Of a stretch of 64,000 bases of DNA, positions 12,378-57,579 are shown piece by piece. Both the position numbers and the translations under genes were made by a program. Source of the stretch: a virus. How positions within the stretch are numbered: position 1 is the stretch's first letter; each line of letters begins with the position of its first letter. The notes beneath the pieces are model-generated. The model searched no databases. It was not told the origin of the DNA and saw only the letters and a list, made by a program, of their open reading frames with translations. The DNA lies in the IMG/VR virus record IMGVR_UViG_3300029989_000016, positions 1 to 64,000 of that record; one strand, 5' to 3'.

Positions 12378-13252
12378 GCTGCTGGTGGGCTTCCTGTTGC
12401 TTTAACGTAGAAAGGAATATCGCGGCTGGTAAGATCATATTCAAGCGAAGTAATAACGTAACGCCCGTCCAGACTAGGGTTTAATTGTGACGTGACTTCC
12501 ACGGCCTGCGCAAGCTTTATATAGCCATCGAACATGCAGCGGAATTCTATACCCCATTCATTCCAAGTCGGTATGCCTATGAACTTAGTCACGTTAGCGA
12601 CTTCGGACGGATTAATGATTCGATTGCGATCTTTGACGATCAAAACGTCATCATCAACGAATGCCGCGACGTTCGGGCGATACATCGACTGGATATCGAT
12701 AAGCAGCGCAGAGACTACCAAAATACTGCGAGCCGGGTTCGATATCACAACATCGTTAAACGAAGTCTCGCAGACGAAGTTAGCGCCGAAGCCCATCTGT
12801 TTAGCTGCGTATTCGACATATCTATAGAAAGTCGTAGATGCCGGGGCGGGTTCGGATACGAAAGCGGTCTTGTCGATCTGGCGGGTAAAGCACGTAATTC
12901 TAACTCCGACATTAGGGGGCGCAGCGGTAGGCTCGCATAGCACCACCTGCCCCTTAAATACTGTCGATACCAGTTCGCCGCGAGTCGTTTTATATCCGGC
13001 CTGAATTTTAACGTTAATCCACTTCTGGCTTGCGCGACCGCTGTCAACCAGGCGCTTATTCCACGCCGTGAATTGAGATAACAATTGCTCGCGCAAGCTT
13101 TTGGACATGCCCGTTACGTCAATCGCGGCGCGGCTTTGAATCGCCAGCGCGGCTTTTGATATCTTAATTTTCAAGTTAATGGACTGATCCAGCGTGACGT
13201 CGCCGCCCGGCATCGAAAGGATTACGCGAAGTATGCGAGTGTCAAGAGTCAT
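12374..13252 (-). CDS. Baseplate hub protein (gp27 / gpD-like)
   Basis: The 292-residue, beta-rich protein is placed directly after the tape measure and before the spike, the usual position of the hub that holds the spike trimer. Segments such as GVRITCFTRQIDKTAF and GRYVITSLEYDLTSRDIPFY resemble the hub family (late-control D / gp27 fold). The final strand ITSLEYD is common in these proteins. It shares one base with the tape measure gene. Confidence 0.65.
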   Translation of the reverse strand: MTLDTRILRVILSMPGGDVTLDQSINLKIKISKAALAIQSRAAIDVTGMSKSLREQLLSQFTAWNKRLVDSGRASQKWINVKIQAGYKTTRGELVSTVFKGQVVLCEPTAAPPNVGVRITCFTRQIDKTAFVSEPAPASTTFYRYVEYAAKQMGFGANFVCETSFNDVVISNPARSILVVSALLIDIQSMYRPNVAAFVDDDVLIVKDRNRIINPSEVANVTKFIGIPTWNEWGIEFRCMFDGYIKLAQAVEVTSQLNPSLDGRYVITSLEYDLTSRDIPFYVKATGSPPAA

Positions 13253-24256: not shown

Positions 24257-24874
24257 TTATTGCGTGAGTTGAACGATGGTGTAAGCCGAAACCAGAGCGC
24301 CCAGCGCCGAAGCCGCTGTCGATACTGGATTGGTCACACGAGCGTTTTTGATGACGACGAAGCCGGTTGGTGCCGCGCCTGCTGCCGGGTACGAAACGAT
24401 AGCGCCGAAAGGCAGCGCCAGCGGATTGTCAGCGCCAGCGATGTTGCTTGGCACGTATGCCAAGCCGTCACCGAACGACACATTTTTCGTGGCCGTGGTT
24501 TCGTTGAACAATTCCACGATCATGATCGCCATATCGGCGAATTCGGCGTTGACTTCATCCGGCAGATTCAGCGAAGGGGCGAGCGTGCCGCCAGTACGGG
24601 TGCCGACCAAAACGTGATGTTTCGGATGCGCCAGGACGCCATAGAAGTTCGGGCCACCGACTTGCACGTAAGGCGCAATGGCCGATTTCGTCGGGTCGGT
24701 AGTGGCCGTGTTGCCGAAGTAACCGAACGCACGCGACATTGCATTCGGGTTCGCTGCCGACAGGATGGTCGTGGCCAGTGGCGCGATGCGGGCAGGCTTG
24801 AGGCGCTGCGGGCCATCGCGGACGATTTCACCAGGAATACCGGTGGAGTATTGACGTTGGACAGTGCGTTGCAT
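24257..24874 (-). CDS. Capsid decoration/cement protein, putative
   Basis: The 205-residue protein is rich in G, A, T, N and P and strand-prone (VQVGGPNFYGVLAHPKHHVLVGT, VGFGDGLAYVPSN-like). It lies between protease/scaffold and capsid genes, where cement proteins are often found. It abuts the protease gene, sharing one base. Confidence 0.6.
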   Translation of the reverse strand: MQRTVQRQYSTGIPGEIVRDGPQRLKPARIAPLATTILSAANPNAMSRAFGYFGNTATTDPTKSAIAPYVQVGGPNFYGVLAHPKHHVLVGTRTGGTLAPSLNLPDEVNAEFADMAIMIVELFNETTATKNVSFGDGLAYVPSNIAGADNPLALPFGAIVSYPAAGAAPTGFVVIKNARVTNPVSTAASALGALVSAYTIVQLTQ

Positions 24875-26307
24875 TATTTTGCGCCTTTCAGATATGCGTC
24901 CATTTCGCTGTTTGCCGATGCGGAATCAGCGGCAGCGGCTTTGACGACTTGGGTTTGTTGTTTGCGGCCTACGGCGATGCCGGTCAGGTACGCGTCCAGG
25001 GTAACGACTTCCATGCCATCAGCGCATTTCAAGCCGAGTTTTTTCACGCCATAAGCACTAACTTGACGTGCATCCATAGTCTTGCAATCGAAGGCTCCAA
25101 CAACCGAAGACAGCCGGTTGTAGACGCTATCCTTAACAGCAAGATCAGCATAGAAAGCAGATACTGCACTGTCTTTTGCTTGCGCGTTAATGCCTGCCGC
25201 TGGGCCTGCCGATGCTTTGCCTTGACCCTCGCCAGCTGAACCAGCTTCGGCGTCGGCTGCGTTTTGAGCTTCAGCTTGGCTTTCACCAGCCGCATTCGCT
25301 GCACCTTCGTCAACGGTTCCGTTGACTCCTTGGGTTTCGTTTGTGGTTCCATTCATGCCCTCATCACCTGCGGAACCAGCGCACAGAGCTTTGATCTGAG
25401 CGAGAACGCCTTCGACTTGCGCGATCAGCTGCGGCAATTCGCCCGCCTCGCCTGCCGTGTTTTCCGGGGCCGCTACGGCTTCCGTTCCTGCCGGGGCTGC
25501 TACCCCTTCCGCACCCGCTGCGGCCTCGCCTGCCAGCGGGTCGTCGGTCGCAGCGGTATTGCCTGCTGCCGCGCCTGCTTCGCCGCCTTGGTGCTCGGGT
25601 TCTTTTGCTTCCTCGCCCAAAAACTCCTGGAGCGCTGGCAGCAAAGCTTGCAACTGGGCAACGGCGTTATCCAGAACCACTTTACGGTTCGGATTCGCTT
25701 TGCCTTTGGTGGCCTTGATGGTCATGTTATCATTCCTTTTATCGGATGGTCTTACAGCAAAATTAAGATGGTCGAAAATCAGACCATCCAACACTTTCGC
25801 GCCGGGGACACGACCTTCATCCACCAGAGCGATATGATTACCGCGCATGTTGGTTTGGACTACCTCGTAAGGTTGCCCGTTCCACACGCCCGGCGTTAAT
25901 TCGAAGTCGCAGGAATAACCCAACGACAAATCTTTTTTGCCCGACGCCAGCGCCGCCTGCATATCGCGTGAAAATACTTTGATATCGCCGCGCATCCATG
26001 GGGCTTCGTAATATACGTTCGCCGTGAGGACGCCGGATACTCCGTACTCTTCAGGTGCGGTGGCCGTCTCGTCGTTTTGCAAACCAGACAGCATTTCGTG
26101 ATCGTTGATGAGCGGAACGTCTTTAAAGCTTTCGATGGCCGATAAGTCGCTGACTGCCGACTCTGGACGGAAAACTTTTACGATGCGGTTTGGGTCGCCC
26201 GGCAGGCCAAGCTGACCGGCGCTGTAATCAAAAATGCCGAATGACGAAATAGGGCAGCCTTTAACTAAGAGGAATCCGTTTTCGTCTTGCTTGCGCTGGC
26301 TTGGCAT
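24874..26307 (-). CDS. Prohead protease fused to scaffold (DUF2213)
   Basis: The product has about 477 residues. The N-terminal 200 match DUF2213: DENGFLLVKGCPISSFGIFDY, FKDVPLINDHEML, SLGYSCDFE and MRGNHIALVDEGRV, which hold the likely His-Ser protease residues. From about 230 to 410 the chain is A/E/G-rich and low in complexity, as expected for an internal scaffold, and the last 90 residues are folded again. The start is uncertain: ATG 26307 or ATG 26322; neither has a strong ribosome site. Confidence 0.75.
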   Translation of the reverse strand: MPSQRKQDENGFLLVKGCPISSFGIFDYSAGQLGLPGDPNRIVKVFRPESAVSDLSAIESFKDVPLINDHEMLSGLQNDETATAPEEYGVSGVLTANVYYEAPWMRGDIKVFSRDMQAALASGKKDLSLGYSCDFELTPGVWNGQPYEVVQTNMRGNHIALVDEGRVPGAKVLDGLIFDHLNFAVRPSDKRNDNMTIKATKGKANPNRKVVLDNAVAQLQALLPALQEFLGEEAKEPEHQGGEAGAAAGNTAATDDPLAGEAAAGAEGVAAPAGTEAVAAPENTAGEAGELPQLIAQVEGVLAQIKALCAGSAGDEGMNGTTNETQGVNGTVDEGAANAAGESQAEAQNAADAEAGSAGEGQGKASAGPAAGINAQAKDSAVSAFYADLAVKDSVYNRLSSVVGAFDCKTMDARQVSAYGVKKLGLKCADGMEVVTLDAYLTGIAVGRKQQTQVVKAAAADSASANSEMDAYLKGAK

Positions 26308-26750
26308 TATGTTCGAACCCATGAATATTATCTGTAGGAGTATATGCGGTTGTCTTATTGCAGGCAACAGATTTATTAAAAACTTTATTCGGTAATTTGC
26401 CGCGAGTTAATCGATATATTCAGCCGCGATATTAATGGAGTTAGGTACATATTCTAAAATACCGGAATATTTCTGAGGGAATAAACCGATACAAACTTGG
26501 GTATTGCCGCAAGTCGTTGTTTTATATAGTTATTAATACCTTTTTATCTGTATATTATCTAAATATCTAAATATCTACAGAATAACTAAAGTAGATAGCT
26601 TTCTATTCCTATGCTCTTGCGAAACCCTCTAGAAAAACGATATTCGAAAATAACGCGGCAAGTCCTTGATTATAAAGCGAAAAGAAATATCCGATTTTTT
26701 AGAATCCGCACTTTCGAAAACCCGAATCCGCTATATCCGGGGCGAAAACA
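26308..26750. other. AT-rich non-coding gap with dispersed repeat
   Basis: No convincing gene is present. The gap carries two copies of a repeat centred on GCAAGTCGTTG (26504-26529) and GCAAGTCCTTG (26655-26677), and a 67-base block that recurs at 46835-46901. Stretches of TATCTAAATATCTA make it easily melted. It lies upstream of the protease/capsid operon, so it may hold a control region or an origin. Confidence 0.6.
26504..26570 (+). repeat. 67-base block shared with 46835-46901, copy 1
   Basis: It begins ATTGCCGCAAGTCGTTGTTTT-like (positions 26503-26523) and ends with TTATCTGTATATTATCTAAATATCTAA-like sequence (about 26544-26570). The same order of elements, with small changes, appears 20 kb away in another non-coding gap. 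Confidence 0.75.
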
Positions 26751-26778
26751 GGCGCGGCAAACATCAATTCGCCGCGCC
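26751..26778 (-). terminator. Terminator after the small membrane gene
   Basis: GGCGCGGC pairs perfectly with GCCGCGCC around a 12-base loop. On the minus strand TGTTTTCG follows. It lies 4 bases beyond the stop of the 51-residue gene. Confidence 0.65.
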
Positions 26779-26782
26779 CGCA

Positions 26783-26938
26783 TCAGATATAAAACATTAA
26801 AAGTATGATCGCAAGATCGAAGAATGCCAGGCGGCGCTTAAAAAACGCGCAGGTAAGGAAAAAATCGTACATATCGATGGCAATTTCTTTTATGCGCTTC
26901 GATACTGATTTCGTTTCGTCTTCAGACGTATATTCCAT
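26783..26938 (-). CDS. Small C-terminally anchored membrane protein (51 residues)
   Basis: On the minus strand, ATG 26938 follows AGGA at seven bases, ten bases after the previous stop. The product starts MEYTSEDETKSVSKRIKEIA and ends in a hydrophobic LAFFDLAIILLMFYI, suggesting a tail-anchored membrane peptide. A terminator follows directly. The gene is short, but ribosome site, coupling and terminator all agree. Function unknown. Confidence 0.55.
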   Translation of the reverse strand: MEYTSEDETKSVSKRIKEIAIDMYDFFLTCAFFKRRLAFFDLAIILLMFYI

Positions 26939-27162: not shown

Positions 27163-28002
27163 TTAAGTGATTACCGGCAGTTTTCTGCATCGGCAACGGA
27201 TCGCCCAGCCGGGCGGGCCTTGGTCTGCCTTCGGGCCTTCCCACAGTCGCGGGTCGTTAAGCTTGAAAATCATACCGTCTTTGGCAACGTGCGAAGGGCG
27301 CGGCGTCTTGCCCGCCGACGAGTGCGCCCATTCGAATTCTTCGATACCATTCTGCAACATTCGCTCGTCGCTCAGAGCGGAATACAACTTACTGTTCTGA
27401 TCGATTGCGATAAGTTCGATTCGCTTTTTAGAGAATCCGGACACTTCCTTAAGCGCGCTTTCGATGCCGGATTGCCCTTGCTGCGCCGGATCGGGCGACG
27501 TAAGGGAAAGCATTACTGCCGTATGGATTTTTTCGTGGACTTCCTTCTGGATTCCGGTAATCAAAGTATGGTTAAAATTGACTGATGCCGCCAGAGTATT
27601 CGCCACGTTAGCGTTATATGCCTTCGTAGGCTGCTGCACTCCCATAGTACTTAGGCTGAATAGCGTGGACGCATCGGCGTGCTGCTCGGACTTGTCCACG
27701 AATTCCTTAGCGGTCTTAGTGGCAAATCCCTGATAAACGCGAGTCCATTTCTCGTTCATGCGAGCAAAGATTGCCGCGAAGATGGACGATACTGACGAGT
27801 CTTCAGCAAAGAACGTTTTCACCTGACTACGATCCAGAGCGGCCTTTACCTGCTCACGGTAGTCCTCGATCATGGAGTGCGTAACAGCGTTCATTTGCTT
27901 TTCGTACCAGCGTTCCACCACTGCACTGGGGATTAAAAGGCGACCTTTCACGGTCGGCCCTTTTAATTTAGTCTCGCGCTTTTTGGATGCAGAGAAGGCC
28001 AT
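27163..28002 (-). CDS. Minor head / head morphogenesis protein (Mu gpF-like)
   Basis: The 279-residue protein has the C-terminal signature of the SPP1 gp7 / Mu gpF group: WAHSSAGKTPRPSHVAKDG, then LNDPRLWEGPKADQGPPG and AIRCRCRKLPVI. It acts inside the procapsid near the portal. It directly follows the portal gene. Confidence 0.8.
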   Translation of the reverse strand: MAFSASKKRETKLKGPTVKGRLLIPSAVVERWYEKQMNAVTHSMIEDYREQVKAALDRSQVKTFFAEDSSVSSIFAAIFARMNEKWTRVYQGFATKTAKEFVDKSEQHADASTLFSLSTMGVQQPTKAYNANVANTLAASVNFNHTLITGIQKEVHEKIHTAVMLSLTSPDPAQQGQSGIESALKEVSGFSKKRIELIAIDQNSKLYSALSDERMLQNGIEEFEWAHSSAGKTPRPSHVAKDGMIFKLNDPRLWEGPKADQGPPGWAIRCRCRKLPVIT

Positions 28003-44397: not shown

Positions 44398-44476
<79 letters not shown>

Positions 44477-44484
44477 ATCATGGA

Positions 44485-44735
44485 TTGACGACAAGAAGTG
44501 AAGAGATTTATATGCGATGTAATCCGCTTCGGCATTCGTCAAAAGGTGCCGGTTACGTTATCCGGCGTCACTTTCGTGACCGTGCAGGGCTTCACCCGCT
44601 AAGTGCCGCGCCCTATGTTCGTCGCTGACGATGATGGTGCGCTACAAATGCTCTGGCCCTCGTGGCGCGGAGTTAAACCGGCGTTGATCGACATTATCCG
44701 CCCTTGCGCAAGGAGAGGACTAACACGAGGATGAT
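44485..44735 (-). ncRNA. Structured non-coding segment between tRNA genes
   Basis: No gene is seen. Perfect stems are TTGACGA/TCGTCAA (44485-44491 with 44536-44542), GCCGG/CCGGC (44548-44552 with 44562-44566) and GTCAC/GTGAC (44567-44580), the last closing a GAAA tetraloop on the minus strand. It may belong with the structured RNA candidate at 44990-45985. Confidence 0.4.
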
Positions 44736-44736
44736 C

Positions 44737-44813
44737 TGGTGGGCAATAAGGGATTCGAACCCCCTGTCACGCGGCATAGAAGACCGCTGTTCTATCCACT
44801 GAACTAATCGCCC
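44737..44813 (-). tRNA. tRNA-Arg (TCT)
   Basis: A 77-base cloverleaf: acceptor GGGCGAT/ATTGCCC, D-stem GTTC/GAAC, anticodon loop CTTCTAT with TCT, T-loop TTCGAAT, encoded CCA. It reads AGA, a codon rare in hosts of moderate to high GC. Confidence 0.9.
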
Positions 44814-44912
44814 ATATTCGGTGCCGCTTACCTTTATGCGGCGACTGGATAAGGATTTTAACCCTCATAAAGCCGGTTCCCTATCGATTGGCCGTAAAGG
44901 GATGTACGGTTC

Positions 44913-44987
44913 TGGAGCGGGCTGTGAGGTTCGAACTCACGCATGGCGACTTGGAAAGACTCAGCCTTACCACTTGGCGAAGCCCGC
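44913..44987 (-). tRNA. tRNA-Gly (TCC) with irregular anticodon stem
   Basis: A 75-base cloverleaf: acceptor GCGGGCT/AGCCCGC, D-stem GCC/GGC, loop TTTCCAA with TCC, T-arm GTGAG-TTCGAAC-CTCAC, discriminator T and CCA. The anticodon stem GAGTC/GTCGC has only three pairs (A-G and T-T mismatches), so it may be decaying or specialised. Confidence 0.75.
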
Positions 44988-45991: not shown

Positions 45992-46480
45992 TTAGTGCTT
46001 TGCGGACGTATCCGGTGTGCCGGGAACTGCCGCCCCGTGCGATCCGTAGAAGTCGGCCAGCGAAGTTCCTTTGCGCGACTTGCCAGTTTCGTCAACCACG
46101 ATAATGCCGCACATAACGTTAAGCTCTTTCAGCGCGTTCAAACGTACAGATTCTTTGTAGACAGGATTGCGAGTCAGGCACAATAATTCGTGCAGCGACT
46201 GCTTTGTATTCCACAAATCCTCGATTGCAATCTCTTTCAAGCGCTGCTTAAAACCGTTCTGGTAATAAGGCGTCGATTCGATTGCATCAATACGCTTCAA
46301 AATGTTCTGGTCTGCGTTGACCTCGCCGAATACGCGACGCAAGGCGATGGACGCGTGGTAGCCGCGTACTCTGTGATCGATATAAAGATCGTAGTCCGCT
46401 TTGTGTTGCTCGATGAATTTATCATCTTCGAACTTCTCATACATAATCGGGAAATTCGACTTGCGTAATGGCTCTGTCAT
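45992..46480 (-). CDS. Terminase small subunit, putative
   Basis: The 162-residue protein has an N-terminal helical region with a helix-turn-helix-like part (HRVRGYHASIALRRVFG), a central helical oligomerisation segment (NTKQSLHELLCLTRNPVYKESVRLNALKEL), and an end with DETGKSRKGTSLADFYG. These are typical of phage small terminases that recognise DNA for packaging. It is 12 kb from the large subunit, an unusual distance, and the structured RNA candidate lies directly downstream on the same strand. Confidence 0.55.
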   Translation of the reverse strand: MTEPLRKSNFPIMYEKFEDDKFIEQHKADYDLYIDHRVRGYHASIALRRVFGEVNADQNILKRIDAIESTPYYQNGFKQRLKEIAIEDLWNTKQSLHELLCLTRNPVYKESVRLNALKELNVMCGIIVVDETGKSRKGTSLADFYGSHGAAVPGTPDTSAKH

Positions 46481-46531
46481 AATATGCTCCTGTTGCTTTA
46501 TTCCGTTTGGCCTCTGTGGCGCTGTGTTGCG

Positions 46532-46562
46532 ATTATATCTAATGCATGCTACTCAGGGTAAA
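46532..46562 (-). promoter_or_regulatory. Probable promoter for the small terminase gene
   Basis: On the minus strand TTTACC (46557-46562), a 19-base spacer and perfect TATAAT (46532-46537) lie 52 bases before the gene. It may also drive the downstream RNA and tRNA genes. Confidence 0.5.
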
Positions 46563-46834
46563 TATTATGTTAATTTCGTGCTGCTTTATGTCCTCTTGAC
46601 GCCGCGCCGCGATAACCTAGAATAGTGCTGCTTTATTGCTGGTTCTGATGATTTGATTATGTCCGAAATTGCGGATATTTTACTGTGGCTGCTGCCGCGC
46701 ATATTGCTTGTTTCCGCTCGTAAGTCGTTGATTCTAAAGCGAAAAGTTTTTTGTGGTTGCCGCGAGTAATTGCGAAATGATGCCGAATATATCGGATTCT
46801 TCTGGCTTTACGAAAACAGATATATTTTCCGGTA

Positions 46835-46901
46835 TTGCCGCAAGTCGTTGTTTTTGCAGTCTTAATTTACTTCTTTTATCTGTATTTATCTAAATATCTA
46901 A
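46835..46901 (+). repeat. 67-base block shared with 26504-26570, copy 2
   Basis: Same order as copy 1: TTGCCGCAAGTCGTTGTTTT, then TTTATCTGTA and TATCTAAATATCTA. The two gaps are 20 kb apart and otherwise different. Confidence 0.75.
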
Positions 46902-47009
46902 TTTAATAGAATATAGATATAAGTATATAGGTATTGTCCTATGCCCTCTCAGACCTTTATGCTAAATTAGTTATTTGCGATTTCAGCGGCTAAATACACT
47001 AAATTTCTC

Positions 47010-47220
47010 TTTAAATACAACTACTTAACAGTTAATGCGAATTATTTCTGACCTTAAAATAAACGGATATTTCCGCTACGAAAAACGATATTTACCGAAT
47101 TTTCACCAGTTTTCGCGGCCCTAAATATTTTCCTCTTTAAATACAACAACTTACGCGGCACGCGAAAAACAGATAAAACGGATATTATCCAGCTTTCGCT
47201 TTAAATACAAGGACTTGCGC
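47010..47220 (+). repeat. Three direct repeats, TTTAAATACAA-N2-ACTT
   Basis: Copies begin at 47010, 47136 and 47200: TTTAAATACAACTACTT, TTTAAATACAACAACTT and TTTAAATACAAGGACTT. Spacings are 126 and 64 bases, near multiples of 63 (about six helical turns). They are the reverse form of the GCAAGTCGTTG repeat. Confidence 0.75.
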
Positions 47221-47450
47221 CACAACCCTAGGCGACATAAACTCGACATAATTCCTGCAAACACGACACTAAAACAACCCACTTCCATTCATAATCCGCC
47301 ACTCACGACTCTACCTCATTTCGCCAGCGGCCTGACTCATAAACAGAACACTTTAAACGCAAGAAAGGACGGCTCAGAAACTTAGTAAAAAGTCACCGAA
47401 CCGCCCGCAAAACTTATCAAATCTCTAACGTTTTAATGTTCTATTCGGCA

Positions 47451-49532
47451 TCAAAATCCAGCCCCTTCGCTCGCTCCGTTACGCGCATTCCCCTTGCCAC
47501 CGGTACGCGTAACCCGCGTAATGTCCTCGTCTTCGGTCGAATCTGCGGCAATTACGCGGCCCATATATTCAACGTCGTCCATCACGCCCTCAAACATATA
47601 GCCCTTATATCCGTCCATCTGCTCCGGTTTCGCCCCCATAGCCAGCATGCGAACCTTAAGCCGGTTATCCATCACCCGATGCCCGCGAGACAGATCAGTA
47701 ATGCGTGAGCTAATATCGCCCGTCTTAACGAAAGCGCCTTTCTTCACGCGACGGTTATAGAACATAACCTCGATACTCATAAGCGCCTCGGTGAGATAAT
47801 TCTCCAGGGCCTGATCTCGCGGCGTACCACGGTTGTTGTTCATTTCGGTAAGGTTGAAAGCCGCAACCTCTTTCACCACCTCTCCGACGAACTTATTGTA
47901 TCCAGACATTCCGTCGTTAGCGTGCAACCACTCACGGCACTCTGCCATAATCTGCCACAGGTCGTCAACGAACCCCGTAAAGTCTGCGCTGTATGTTTCC
48001 GCCGCCGACTCCTTACCGTTCGCGTCAATATGCTGGCCCACCAGCATGGGATAGAAACGACGATTACCAGTTTCGTCCCTTTGCAAGCCTTCGTAACGAT
48101 TGCCGTCCATCACGGTTATCCACTGCCGCTGCTGGTCGTAATGGCCCTCAAATTTCTGGTGCATCTTGTCGCTGGTCAGCGTCATGAAGGACTTGACCTT
48201 ATTCATATCGGCTGTATTAAAACCAGTCATTTCGCCGATATTAGCGATGATCGATGTGCCGGTAATATCGCGCAAGAACTTAATCGGATCGACGCCCAGG
48301 TCCAGCTGCACGGCATCCGCATTTTGATCGCTCATAAGGGTGCGGCATATCAGCTTCGACATATACGACTTACCTGCGTCCTGCGGCCCGAACAGAGACA
48401 GTGCAATGGGTGCCATGCAGCCTGGATGCATAATACGAGCATAAAGCGACAACCAGAAATACTGCCCGAACTTCTTGTTTAAGTCCGTCTTGAACGTGCT
48501 GAAAAGGTTAATCAACTTGTGCTGGGCGCGTCGCTTTCCGTCCCATTCCGGTAACTGCCGTTCGAAGCTGATGATAAGGTCGTTTTGCTTGCGACCCAAA
48601 GACCACTCACGAAGTGATGCCTTAAGGTCGCGTACCGATTGCGACTTAAGCCCGGCAGCGCCCGACGCCGTAAGAATTTCGATCATATTGTAATGGTCGT
48701 CAATAATTACCTTGTTGTGATCCACCATGCGCCCGCTGAATAAATCGATGTGCGGTCGGTCTTCTCCGTCGCCGAAAATCATATCGAAAAATGCCATACG
48801 ATTGGAGTCGCATGATACTGGCTGGGATATCGTCATATCGCCGACTCGAATAAATTTTTCTTCGGCCCACTTAAACGGCATGGCATTAGAAAGTGCCTTT
48901 GCTCGCTTTACCAGATTAGGCTCTAAGCGTATTTCGTCCGCAAGTTCCTCGTCAGCACTGCGGCGAACCGACAGGCTAGATACGGCGCGCACCGATAACG
49001 TTTGCGCGGCCTGCATATCTTCCGACACTTCCGCTTCGCCCCACTTTGGCATCGAATACTCTACGTCCACGTCGTCCTTCGGCAGCATAGGGGCGACTGT
49101 CATGCGACGCTCGCGCCATTCCGAAACCGAAGCCGAGACTTCCGCCTCACGCTGCTCGCGTGCCACTTCCTTTTCTTGCTCTGCCTTTGCCACTTCCGCG
49201 TCTGCCGCATCTTTCAATTGCTGCGCGAGTGCGTCAGCATCTGCCGTCTTCGCCTTGACTCGTGCTAATTGCCGCGCTGCCACGTCCTGCGCTACCGCCG
49301 CGACGTTTTCGGGCGTCGGCTCTACGAAGGGAACCCCTCTTTGCTCTGCGACGAGCCTGGAGCGTTCTAGCGCCTTTGCCGCCTTCGCCTCTTTCTTAAG
49401 GCGGGCTATTTCTTTTGCCTCTTCCTTCACTGCCGCGCTTGATGCTTTAATCTGGGCAGGCGTTAATACGTCTTCCGCCTTCGTTGCTTCGTCGTCCCAT
49501 GGGAGTCCGCCGCCTGTTTTACTATCGGTCAT
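47451..49532 (-). CDS. VapE-type primase/helicase ATPase
   Basis: The 693-residue protein has an A/E/K-rich coiled-coil front (about 25-145) and a VapE-like superfamily 3 helicase domain: Walker A GPQDAGKS (382-389), Walker B-like SIIANIGEM (about 425-433), and KSFMTLTSDKMHQKFEGHY with RFYPMLVGQ after it. Such proteins unwind DNA at phage origins, usually with a primase, which is the next gene upstream. The C-terminal 120 residues may bind DNA or the partner. Confidence 0.8.
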   Translation of the reverse strand: MTDSKTGGGLPWDDEATKAEDVLTPAQIKASSAAVKEEAKEIARLKKEAKAAKALERSRLVAEQRGVPFVEPTPENVAAVAQDVAARQLARVKAKTADADALAQQLKDAADAEVAKAEQEKEVAREQREAEVSASVSEWRERRMTVAPMLPKDDVDVEYSMPKWGEAEVSEDMQAAQTLSVRAVSSLSVRRSADEELADEIRLEPNLVKRAKALSNAMPFKWAEEKFIRVGDMTISQPVSCDSNRMAFFDMIFGDGEDRPHIDLFSGRMVDHNKVIIDDHYNMIEILTASGAAGLKSQSVRDLKASLREWSLGRKQNDLIISFERQLPEWDGKRRAQHKLINLFSTFKTDLNKKFGQYFWLSLYARIMHPGCMAPIALSLFGPQDAGKSYMSKLICRTLMSDQNADAVQLDLGVDPIKFLRDITGTSIIANIGEMTGFNTADMNKVKSFMTLTSDKMHQKFEGHYDQQRQWITVMDGNRYEGLQRDETGNRRFYPMLVGQHIDANGKESAAETYSADFTGFVDDLWQIMAECREWLHANDGMSGYNKFVGEVVKEVAAFNLTEMNNNRGTPRDQALENYLTEALMSIEVMFYNRRVKKGAFVKTGDISSRITDLSRGHRVMDNRLKVRMLAMGAKPEQMDGYKGYMFEGVMDDVEYMGRVIAADSTEDEDITRVTRTGGKGNARNGASEGAGF

Positions 49533-49606: not shown

Positions 49607-50728
49607 TTAGTATTCTCCGTTAATTCGCTCTAAATCTGCAACTATTTTATTAATTACTATTTCGTCAATGAACGTATTCCACGTTCGGCGATGCAGTTTG
49701 CGGCAGGTATCGTGACCGCAACCGAATACGAATTCGACTTCAGCGCCGGGGATAGGGCCGCGAAAGTATGCGCCGCTCGGATCGCCGTTGGCATGCTCGT
49801 GACCCCATGGGCAGGCGATGCGGAATTTGCCCGACATATTCATGACGACTTCGCCGTTACTGCCTTCGCCCTGCTGCGCTTTATTGAGGATGCGTTCGGC
49901 CATAGTGAGCCATAAGGCGTCGAAAGTGTACGCTTCGGCGTCTATCTCATAAATCCGTTTCTGCGGCACGACGATAGGGAACGTAAAGGCGCGGGCAATC
50001 TCGTCCATGGAGTATCGGCGGCGGTAGTCTGCGTCCCGGATTTGAACCTGATACGGTACTGCGTTTCCTTTGCCGTCCAGTACCGGGTATTTATAGGCGT
50101 TATTGGGGCCGTGGCGCTTGTTGTTGATGCCGATTGGCATTCTGCCGTAGCGGGATACGTCTTTGATGGTGCTGTCGCCGCCCTTTTTGAGAACTGCGCT
50201 GACGAAGCACGACAAGAAGGCTTTGAAGCGTTGCATATCCGGCTCAGGGATATCGAAGAAATACCAGAGTTGGTAATTTCCGGGGCTGGTCTCCACAGTC
50301 GCGGTAGGCTTAAGGATATCGTACATATGCTGTACGCTGATATCGCCCTTGCTGCCGGTTCCGCTTCCGATATCGTCCACCATTAAGGCGAGGCCATGGC
50401 CGAAAGACATTTCGCCGCGCCAGTAGCGCATCGTTCCAGTTCGCGGGTTCGGCGTTTTAATGCTGCTGCTGATGCAGGCATAGCAGTTCGCGGCGTCGTT
50501 GATGTACTTCCCTTCTGCCCACGGAGTCGGCCACCATCCGCCGTTGATTTTCTTGCCGTCCGAGTCCGTTTGTACGGTCGCCTCGTCGGCATATCCTGCC
50601 ATAACACGCTCGTTCTCCGGGATTCCGTTGTGTAACTGGATCAGGAATTCTTCGCACTTTGCCATGCGTGCGGCTTTGATTACTTGCGGCGATACTTGCG
50701 CCGTTTTTACTTCGCTACTGGTAGTCAT
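49607..50728 (-). CDS. DNA primase, RepB/AEP-like
   Basis: The 373-residue protein has the archaeo-eukaryotic primase core: LALMVDDIG (113-121, metal-binding acids), ATVETSPGNYQLWYFF (143-158) and later DVSRYGRMPIGINNKRH. The C-terminal part (CPWGHEHANGDPSGAYF, GCGHDTCRKLH) has Cys/His pairs, like a zinc module. It primes DNA synthesis, here probably with the VapE-type helicase encoded next. Its start overlaps the previous stop by one base (TAATG). Confidence 0.75.
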   Translation of the reverse strand: MTTSSEVKTAQVSPQVIKAARMAKCEEFLIQLHNGIPENERVMAGYADEATVQTDSDGKKINGGWWPTPWAEGKYINDAANCYACISSSIKTPNPRTGTMRYWRGEMSFGHGLALMVDDIGSGTGSKGDISVQHMYDILKPTATVETSPGNYQLWYFFDIPEPDMQRFKAFLSCFVSAVLKKGGDSTIKDVSRYGRMPIGINNKRHGPNNAYKYPVLDGKGNAVPYQVQIRDADYRRRYSMDEIARAFTFPIVVPQKRIYEIDAEAYTFDALWLTMAERILNKAQQGEGSNGEVVMNMSGKFRIACPWGHEHANGDPSGAYFRGPIPGAEVEFVFGCGHDTCRKLHRRTWNTFIDEIVINKIVADLERINGEY

Positions 50729-56640: not shown

Positions 56641-57579
56641 ATGAACACTCAAGAAAATGCTGTCGGCGGTACGAACACCCTGAACCCTGCCATCCCTACC
56701 GACGCGCAAATCGCCGCCAAAGAAAAGGCCGACAAAAAAGCTGCCGACGCGCAAGCCAAGCTGGACAAAAAAGCCGCTGAAGACCTGATCAAAGCCGACA
56801 AAAAAGCTGCCGACGACCTGGCAAAAGCCGAAAAAGCAGCCGTCGCATTGCAGGCCAAAGCCGACGCCAAAGCGCTGAAGGATGCCGAAAAAGCCAAAAA
56901 ACTGGCCGACGCTGCCGCGCTGAAAGCGAAAGACGCCGAAGAAAACGCTGGCGCCATCGCCGAAGCCAAGGCCAAAAAAGAGGCAGACGCCGCCGCCGCG
57001 AAGCTGGAAGCGAAAACCAAGAAAGACGCCGATAAAGTCGCCGCAAAAGCCCTGAAAGATGCCGCCAAGGCCGAAAAAGCCGAAACCGCCCTGCGCCTGA
57101 AAAGCGAAGGAAAGACCGCACGCGAAGCCCACCTGGCAAGCGTCGCTAAATCGGTTGCAGAACGCCGCGCAGCTACCGTAACGCCGGGTGGCCGTCGTCC
57201 GAAGGCAACGCATATCGTTCTGAATGCCGACGATTCCGCGCTGTCCGTCCCGCAAAAAGCATCGGTTCGCGGCCATGTGCTGGCCTACATCCGCGAAAAC
57301 TTCGTCGTCGGTGAGCAAGTATGCATCGAAACGATGGGGGCCGATATCGCCGCCGCCGACCTGGCAGCAAGCGCGGCCCGTACCCCGCAAATCCTGTACG
57401 GTTCGGCCCTGCGCCAGTACCTGTCGAAGCTGGAAGAAATGGGCCATATCGATTACGTCGCCGTCGCACCTTCGGAACCGGAATCCCCCGCTTGTGGCGC
57501 ACCGGACGAAACTGGCAACGCTTCGGCTGACCAAGCTGAAGGCCAGACAGTCGGCGAAGAAAGCCCCGAGCAAGCTTAA
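56641..57579 (+). CDS. Lys/Ala-rich coiled-coil protein with C-terminal domain
   Basis: The 312-residue protein has a long run of K, A, D and E (about 25-165: AKEKADKKAADAQAKLDKKA), like TolA or histone H1 tails. A folded domain follows (about 175-275: VPQKASVRGHVLAYIRENFVVGEQV, LRQYLSKLEEMGHIDYV), of winged-helix form, and an acidic end. It has its own promoter and terminator, so it is probably abundant. It might coat or organise phage DNA; this is inference. Confidence 0.6.
   Translation: MNTQENAVGGTNTLNPAIPTDAQIAAKEKADKKAADAQAKLDKKAAEDLIKADKKAADDLAKAEKAAVALQAKADAKALKDAEKAKKLADAAALKAKDAEENAGAIAEAKAKKEADAAAAKLEAKTKKDADKVAAKALKDAAKAEKAETALRLKSEGKTAREAHLASVAKSVAERRAATVTPGGRRPKATHIVLNADDSALSVPQKASVRGHVLAYIRENFVVGEQVCIETMGADIAAADLAASAARTPQILYGSALRQYLSKLEEMGHIDYVAVAPSEPESPACGAPDETGNASADQAEGQTVGEESPEQA

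What the first reader, a model, noticed from the sequence alone, without database searches (positions are those of the whole stretch)
46716..47220. Dispersed repeat in both orientations, possible origin or phage-specific promoter
Seen: five copies of one element around TTTAAATACAA-CGACTTGCGGC (or its reverse, GCCGCAAGTCGTTG) at 46716, 46835, 47010, 47136 and 47200, with spacings of 126 and 64 bases between the last three. They lie in AT-rich sequence beside the primase/helicase operon. Inference: iterons of a replication origin, or binding sites of a regulator.
Basis: partly seen in the sequence, partly recalled or inferred. Interest (0 to 1): 0.7.

Follow-up and report, generated by a model that had tools for sequence, protein, structure and literature searches.

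The report
Twin putative phage replication origins
The repeats look like the docking sites of a replication-starting helicase, and most related phages examined carry two such arrays, one by the replication genes and one inside the head-building genes, each lineage with its own repeat 'password', which gives a testable origin for a phage family whose origin is not known.

Summary
Five copies of CAAnnACTTnCG lie at 46719-47219 (0.19 chance matches expected for the six found in the window). They sit in the most AT-rich part of the window, between a VapE-type helicase gene and the small-terminase gene, in two arms pointing at an 82% AT core. A second region with the same element lies at 26399-26680, inside the head operon. 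The phage is Lindbergviridae-like (PB1/BcepF1/WFC relatives). In 15 of 22 genomes compared the same two places carry repeat arrays; each lineage has its own repeat, used at both places and almost nowhere else. Over 33 arrays, 133 repeats point one way and 136 the other, and the AT peak lies between repeats in 24 (7.5 expected). The helicase models on the staphylococcal PriRep1 initiator (Z 24.3), winged helix included. Best reading: a PICI/SaPI-type origin (rep gene, then two iteron sets around an AT core) in lytic myophages, plus a second copy in the late region, comparable to SPP1 oriL/oriR. Initiation, the identity of the binding protein and the role of the second site are inferred. Packaging-site and promoter readings are less likely but not excluded.

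The parts
46481..47450 (.). Site 1: 970-bp non-coding AT-rich gap between the VapE-type helicase gene and the terS gene; proposed primary origin
   Evidence: (AT rank 1 of 2834 windows)
46719..46738 (-). Iteron copy, left arm (TTTAGAATCAACGACTTACG)
46759..46774 (-). Degenerate iteron (GCCGCGAGTAATTGCG on + strand)
   Evidence: one mismatch to CAAnnACTTnCG at 46761; sequence
46839..46858 (-). Iteron copy, left arm (TGCAAAAACAACGACTTGCG)
46848..46927 (.). AT core between the two arms (82% AT); shares TTATCTAAATATCTAA with site 2
47010..47029 (+). Iteron copy, right arm (TTTAAATACAACTACTTAAC)
47136..47155 (+). Iteron copy, right arm (TTTAAATACAACAACTTACG)
47200..47219 (+). Iteron copy, right arm (TTTAAATACAAGGACTTGCG)
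47451..49532 (-). VapE-type AAA+ (SF3/D5-like) helicase with C-terminal winged helix (about residues 574-650); proposed initiator
   Evidence: PF05272 E 3.9e-28; PDB 7pds E 4.9e-24 by profile; model vs 7pds Z 24.3 over residues 217-658
49607..50728 (-). RepB-type primase
   Evidence: PF16793 E 1.1e-33; phrog_4861
45992..46480 (-). Small terminase (TerS) homologue directly beyond site 1
   Evidence: family profile hits PDB 7uxe small terminase E 2.3e-66
26368..26800 (.). Site 2: second AT-rich non-coding region in the head operon, upstream of the prohead protease gene; proposed second origin or fork-arrest site
   Evidence: rank 1 of 1302 windows sharing site-1 repeated 8-mers; aligned
26399..26413 (-). 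Degenerate iteron in site 2 (GCCGCGAGTTAATCG on + strand)
   Evidence: sequence
26508..26527 (-). Iteron copy in site 2 (ATATAAAACAACGACTTGCG)
26517..26596 (.). AT core of site 2 (82% AT)
26657..26676 (-). Iteron copy in site 2 (TTTATAATCAAGGACTTGCC)
24874..26310 (-). Prohead protease gene downstream of site 2 (marks the conserved location)
   Evidence: phrog_3778 E 2.1e-161
27163..28002 (-). Head morphogenesis gene on the other side of site 2
   Evidence: phrog_324 E 5.4e-75

Best explanation
The repeats are iterons: binding sites of the phage's own initiator, most likely the VapE-type helicase encoded next door, through its C-terminal winged helix. At site 1 two opposed iteron arms flank an AT-rich core. 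The helicase would load there (perhaps as two rings), melt the core and start replication, with the RepB-type primase laying primers. Site 2, in the head operon 20 kb away, carries the same iterons beside a similar AT core and is bound by the same protein; it acts as a second (late) origin or as a roadblock that converts theta replication to concatemer synthesis, as proposed for SPP1 oriR. Shown: repeats, arms, AT core, two-site conservation and the initiator's predicted domain structure. Inferred: binding by VapE, initiation, and the role of site 2.
For: Chance excluded. The site-2 gap ranks first of all windows genome-wide for shared site-1 repeats in OWN, E217, Bas99, BcepF1, G014, G012, G002 and G016; a hypothesis-free repeat scan finds paired arrays in most genomes. 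Motifs are nearly confined to the two sites, e.g. E217 16/16, Bas99 20/20, Maja 17/17, G012 23/23 (motifs were trained on the sites, so partly by construction). Orientation 133:136 and AT peak between iterons in 24 of 33 arrays, 7.5 expected. Sites are among the most AT-rich windows. Same geometry at both sites in 7 of 15 genomes. The helicase resembles PriRep1, winged helix included. Motif similarity follows the VapE winged helix (partial r 0.25, p 0.006) better than TerS (0.16, p 0.07) with TerL controlled. PICI/SaPI Rep proteins bind iterons directly 3' of their gene, two sets around an AT-rich region (PMC6092414; PMC7581432).
Against: No replication or binding data. In four genomes (Bas99, G001, PaPA1, G010) site 1 lies 4.5-8.3 kb from the helicase gene but still beside terS. 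GC skew does not support it: in the window cumulative skew peaks near 45 kb and its lowest value is near 60 kb, and in Pbunavirus the published skew minima lie elsewhere. Three genomes (Pluto, G009, G011) show only site 1, three are unresolved, SMP is weak. In this window site 2 has only two clear iterons, both in the same direction. The covariation with VapE is modest and eight protein regions were tested.
Confidence: 0.68

Rival explanations
1. The arrays are packaging (pac) sites recognised by the small terminase, whose gene lies directly beyond site 1.
For: Site 1 is within about 0.6 kb of terS in all 15 two-site genomes, even where the helicase gene is 4.5-8 kb away; TerS identity is firm; TerS also diverges quickly.
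Against: Pluto and G009 have the array beside VapE with terS about 3 kb away. BcepF1 and Karil share nearly the same motif (0.92) although their TerS are only 44% identical, while BcepF1 and Maja TerS are 67% identical with motif similarity 0.65. E217 TerS showed no appreciable DNA binding in vitro (PMC9611059) and read starts of a Pbunavirus show no significant peak (PMC12390725). Two pac sites 12-29 kb apart around AT cores have no precedent known to me.
Confidence: 0.14
2. The arrays are control regions: sites of a phage transcription activator or sigma factor driving terS and the protease-capsid genes.
For: Both sites lie upstream of a late gene. The JG024 paper predicted a sigma70 promoter at 13050-13100, which by coordinates would fall in site 2 of that closely related phage, and proposed that conserved intergenic motifs of PB1-like phages are sigma-factor sites (PMC3008698).
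Against: Repeats point equally both ways (133:136) around an AT core; the element is nearly absent elsewhere in the genomes; sigma70-like matches in the window sites are at chance level. Promoters may still lie inside an origin, so the two readings are not exclusive.
Confidence: 0.13
3. The reader of the repeats is not VapE but another lineage-variable protein, or the repeats are single-strand priming signals of the RepB-type primase (as RSF1010 ssi sites).
For: RepB-type primases recognise ssi sites in opposite orientation in RSF1010 (own knowledge); short family-wide elements such as CGCGGCA and CTTGCGGC are enriched at the sites.
Against: RepB is strongly conserved (mean identity 61%) while the repeats differ completely between genera; RepB identity does not predict the motif beyond TerL (partial r 0.07).
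Confidence: 0.05

Closest known systems
PICI/SaPI replication module (pri-rep-ori), e.g. SaPIs and E. coli PICIs (PMC6092414; PMC7581432)
   Same: Primase gene, initiator helicase gene, then an origin directly 3' made of two sets of short iterons around an AT-rich region; helicase of the PriRep1 fold with a C-terminal DNA-binding domain; element-specific iterons.
   Different: Here in lytic myophages, not satellites; the primase is a RepB-type protein; a second array of the same iterons sits in the head operon; site 1 can lie several kb from the helicase gene. [quoted passage not shown]
Bacillus phage SPP1 oriL/oriR (PMC6316719; PMC3485210)
   Same: Two origin-like regions with the same repeats plus an AT-rich element, one with the replication genes and one interrupting the late morphogenesis genes, 12-13 kb apart (here 12-29 kb).
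   Different: SPP1 uses the initiator gp38 with a DnaB-type helicase and loader, and direct repeats; here a self-loading-type helicase is the candidate and repeats are inverted in two arms.
Satellite phage P4 ori and crr with alpha protein (own knowledge; briefly PMC6092414)
   Same: Two separated sites with the same short repeats in both orientations, bound by one helicase-initiator with a C-terminal winged helix.
   Different: P4 alpha is a fused TOPRIM-type primase-helicase of a small satellite; spacing a few kb.
Conserved intergenic motifs of PB1-like phages (JG024, PMC3008698)
   Same: AT-rich boxes and conserved intergenic motifs had been noticed with MEME in this group.
   Different: They were suggested to be sigma-factor sites; arms, two-site sharing, lineage-specific iterons and the link to an initiator were not described in the papers I could read.

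Membership tests
PICI/SaPI-type origin | Adjacent initiator helicase of the Rep/VapE (PriRep1) type | tested here: met
   PF05272, 7pds by profile E 4.9e-24, structure Z 24.3 over 217-658
PICI/SaPI-type origin | C-terminal DNA-binding domain in the helicase | tested here: met
   winged-helix-like helix/strand order at 574-648 in the model; 7pds alignment extends to 658; DNA binding itself not tested
PICI/SaPI-type origin | Origin directly 3' of the rep gene | tested here: met
   window: the gap begins right at the helicase stop; in relatives not met in Bas99, G001, PaPA1, G010
[quoted passage not shown]
   window site 1: two copies left, three right, opposed, core 82% AT; over all arrays 24 of 33 vs 7.5 expected; site 2 of the window only partly
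PICI/SaPI-type origin | Cognate Rep binds its own iterons | not testable with these tools
   only indirect covariation
PICI/SaPI-type origin | pri-rep-ori maintains a plasmid | not testable with these tools
   needs experiment
SPP1-type dual origin | Second array with the same repeats in the late region | tested here: met
SPP1-type dual origin | gp38-type initiator and DnaB-type helicase | not tested
   no search for a gp38 homologue; the candidate initiator is VapE-type, so the likeness claimed is in layout only
pac site | Recognised by TerS; start of headful packaging | not testable with these tools
   no reads; literature: no appreciable DNA binding by E217 TerS, no read-start peak
pac site | Motif follows TerS divergence | tested here: inconclusive
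   BcepF1/Karil/Maja contrast and partial correlation disfavour TerS, not decisive

The most novel reading that the evidence does not exclude
A lytic phage family runs on two copies of a PICI/SaPI-type origin: one in the replication region that starts theta replication and one embedded in the head operon that switches replication to concatemer synthesis. One helicase reads both, so the two arrays and the helicase's winged helix change together, giving each lineage a private replication code.
Probability: 0.35. Interest if true: 0.78.

Novelty: new variant of a known kind. Interest (0 to 1): 0.62.

Why it matters
Pbunavirus and its relatives include phages studied for therapy, yet their origin of replication is unknown; the only published guess found here, from GC skew, is in the DNA polymerase gene. 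This work names two short places, a repeat for each lineage and a candidate initiator, so origin mapping, gel shifts and plasmid tests become direct. It moves an origin type described as exclusive to satellite islands into lytic phages, and links it to the SPP1 idea of a second origin in the late genes. A helicase that changes its recognition sequence together with two distant arrays would also be a good system for studying how replication specificity evolves.

Tried and rejected
Exact repeat in IMG/VR: eight stretches from one pattern scan, each with a single exact match and no array; taken as unrelated. The shared 22-mer TATTGCCGCAAGTCGTTGTTTT: no hit in IMG/VR. DNA-level search of the region in phage records: none. 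GC skew as origin evidence: not helpful. Rfam: only tRNAs, no known structured RNA at the sites. Sigma70 promoter and terminator scans: near chance. Geometry match between the two sites is significant in 7 genomes (G002, Maja, PaPA1, Bas99, G010, G012, G016) but not in the window, E217, G015, BcepF1 and G001. The primary paper on the PriRep1 structures is not held. Two early scripts stopped on an error part-way and were completed.

Full report
What is there. They lie in a 970-bp gap without a convincing gene (46481-47450) that holds the most AT-rich 250-bp window of the window. To the right is a VapE-type helicase gene (47451-49532) preceded in its operon by a RepB-type primase gene; to the left is a 162-aa protein whose family matches the solved small terminase 7uxe. 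Copies left of the AT core are on the minus strand and copies right of it on the plus strand, so the two arms point at each other around an 82% AT core.

A second site. Relaxed searching gave two more copies at 26508 and 26657, in an AT-rich non-coding stretch between the head-morphogenesis and prohead-protease genes. Both regions also share a longer core, including TTATCTAAATATCTAA and TCCTATGC. Of 1302 windows, that stretch shares most repeated 8-mers with site 1.

The phage and its relatives. The record is a 67,348-bp IMG/VR virus. Its helicase and primase match phages of Pbunavirus, Bcepfunavirus, Wifcevirus, Kylevirus, Myosmarvirus and the Luteibacter phage Pluto, genera of Lindbergviridae. 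I read 21 related records, 18 of them full-length or nearly so and three partial. A repeat scan made without the hypothesis found, in most genomes, two places with the same lineage-specific repeat: after the helicase gene and/or before terS, and in the gap before the protease gene. In E217, Bas99, BcepF1, G014, G012, G002, G016 and the window the protease-side gap is rank 1 of 559-1394 windows for sharing site-1 repeats. Repeat consensuses include CCAAATTACCG (E217), ATGATACGGATGAT (Bas99), TAACTAAG (BcepF1, Karil), ATAGTTAA (Maja), TATCCGATAA (G012), GAACTTGCGG (G002) and AAACCGTTATAA (Pantoea PA1). Genome-wide they are nearly confined to the two sites, although the models were trained there, so this last point is partly by construction. 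Fifteen genomes show two sites (E217 and G015 are near-duplicates), SMP weakly; Pluto, G009 and G011 show site 1 only; G005, G007 and G013 are unresolved. The sites are 12-29 kb apart, always in the same direction.

Architecture. Over 33 arrays there are 133 repeats in one direction relative to the genes and 136 in the other; the AT-richest repeat-free stretch lies between repeats in 24 arrays, 7.5 expected. Geometry repeats between the two sites of one genome in 7 of 15 cases, most clearly G002 (9 of 9 site-2 repeats in register). [quoted passage not shown]

The likely reader. A model of the window helicase (mean pLDDT 80) aligns with PriRep1 bound to DNA (7pds) at Z 24.3 over residues 217-658, twice the Z of the next entry and including the C-terminal winged helix; the profile search agrees (E 4.9e-24). 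Independently, the Banzai paper proposed the Pbunavirus homologue as initiator from its likeness to these helicases (PMC12390725) but placed possible origins by GC skew, the most prominent within the DNA polymerase gene. Motif similarity follows the winged helix best once TerL divergence is controlled (partial r 0.25, p 0.006; TerS 0.16, p 0.07), a modest result among eight regions tested. In the Bcepfunavirus group the repeat stays almost the same between BcepF1 and Karil although TerS has fallen to 44% identity.

Rivals. The packaging-site reading is the strongest rival, since site 1 stays beside terS where the helicase gene lies apart (Bas99, G001, PaPA1, G010). Against it: Pluto and G009 have the array by the helicase gene and terS about 3 kb off, E217 TerS did not bind DNA appreciably (PMC9611059), read starts show no significant peak, and two pac sites would be odd. 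The promoter reading goes back to the JG024 paper, which noticed conserved intergenic motifs and AT-rich boxes and suggested sigma-factor sites (PMC3008698); equal orientations argue against it, but a promoter could lie inside an origin.

Role of site 2. SPP1 has two origins with the same organisation of direct repeats and AT-rich region, oriL in gene 38 and oriR interrupting the late genes, 12-13 kb apart; gp38 bound to oriR is proposed to stall forks and trigger concatemer synthesis (PMC6316719; PMC3485210). The layout here is similar with a different kind of initiator. Whether site 2 starts, stops or switches replication is not known; some relatives manage without a detectable one.

Verdict. 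A putative origin of PICI/SaPI type in lytic myophages, with a second copy in the head operon. What is shown is sequence architecture and its conservation; binding and initiation remain to be tested.

Noticed in passing
window 47451-49532 (C-terminus) and relatives: The VapE-type helicases end in a nearly invariant phenylalanine after an acidic, variable tail (often ...GF at the C-terminus), reminiscent of the interaction tip of single-strand binding proteins.
   Followed up: no
window 49080-49532 (N-terminal part of the helicase): The window's helicase has an N-terminal extension of about 150 residues, mostly predicted helix, absent from relatives.
   Followed up: no
window 47001-48000: Strong local GC skew (-0.285) including the spacer between the repeats and the end of the helicase gene; E217 has a C-rich stretch with a 39-bp tandem repeat beyond its repeats.
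   Followed up: partly
L016:11335-11955 (E217 gp77): Annotated hypothetical gene overlaps the iteron array and the 39-bp tandem repeat; probably not a real gene.
   Followed up: partly
window 56641-57579 and repeat-dense stretches in relatives: The most repeat-dense stretch in many of these genomes is a different region, probably coding, rich in short repeats (AAGCCGAG-like), unrelated to the iterons.
   Followed up: no
window 44401-44987: Three tRNA genes on the minus strand.
   Followed up: no
sites 1 and 2 of 17 genomes: Short elements shared across genera, CGCGGCA and CTTGCGGC, are enriched at the sites (e.g. CTTGCGGC 21 seen, 2.6 expected, 11 of 17 genomes), besides the lineage-specific iterons.
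   Followed up: partly
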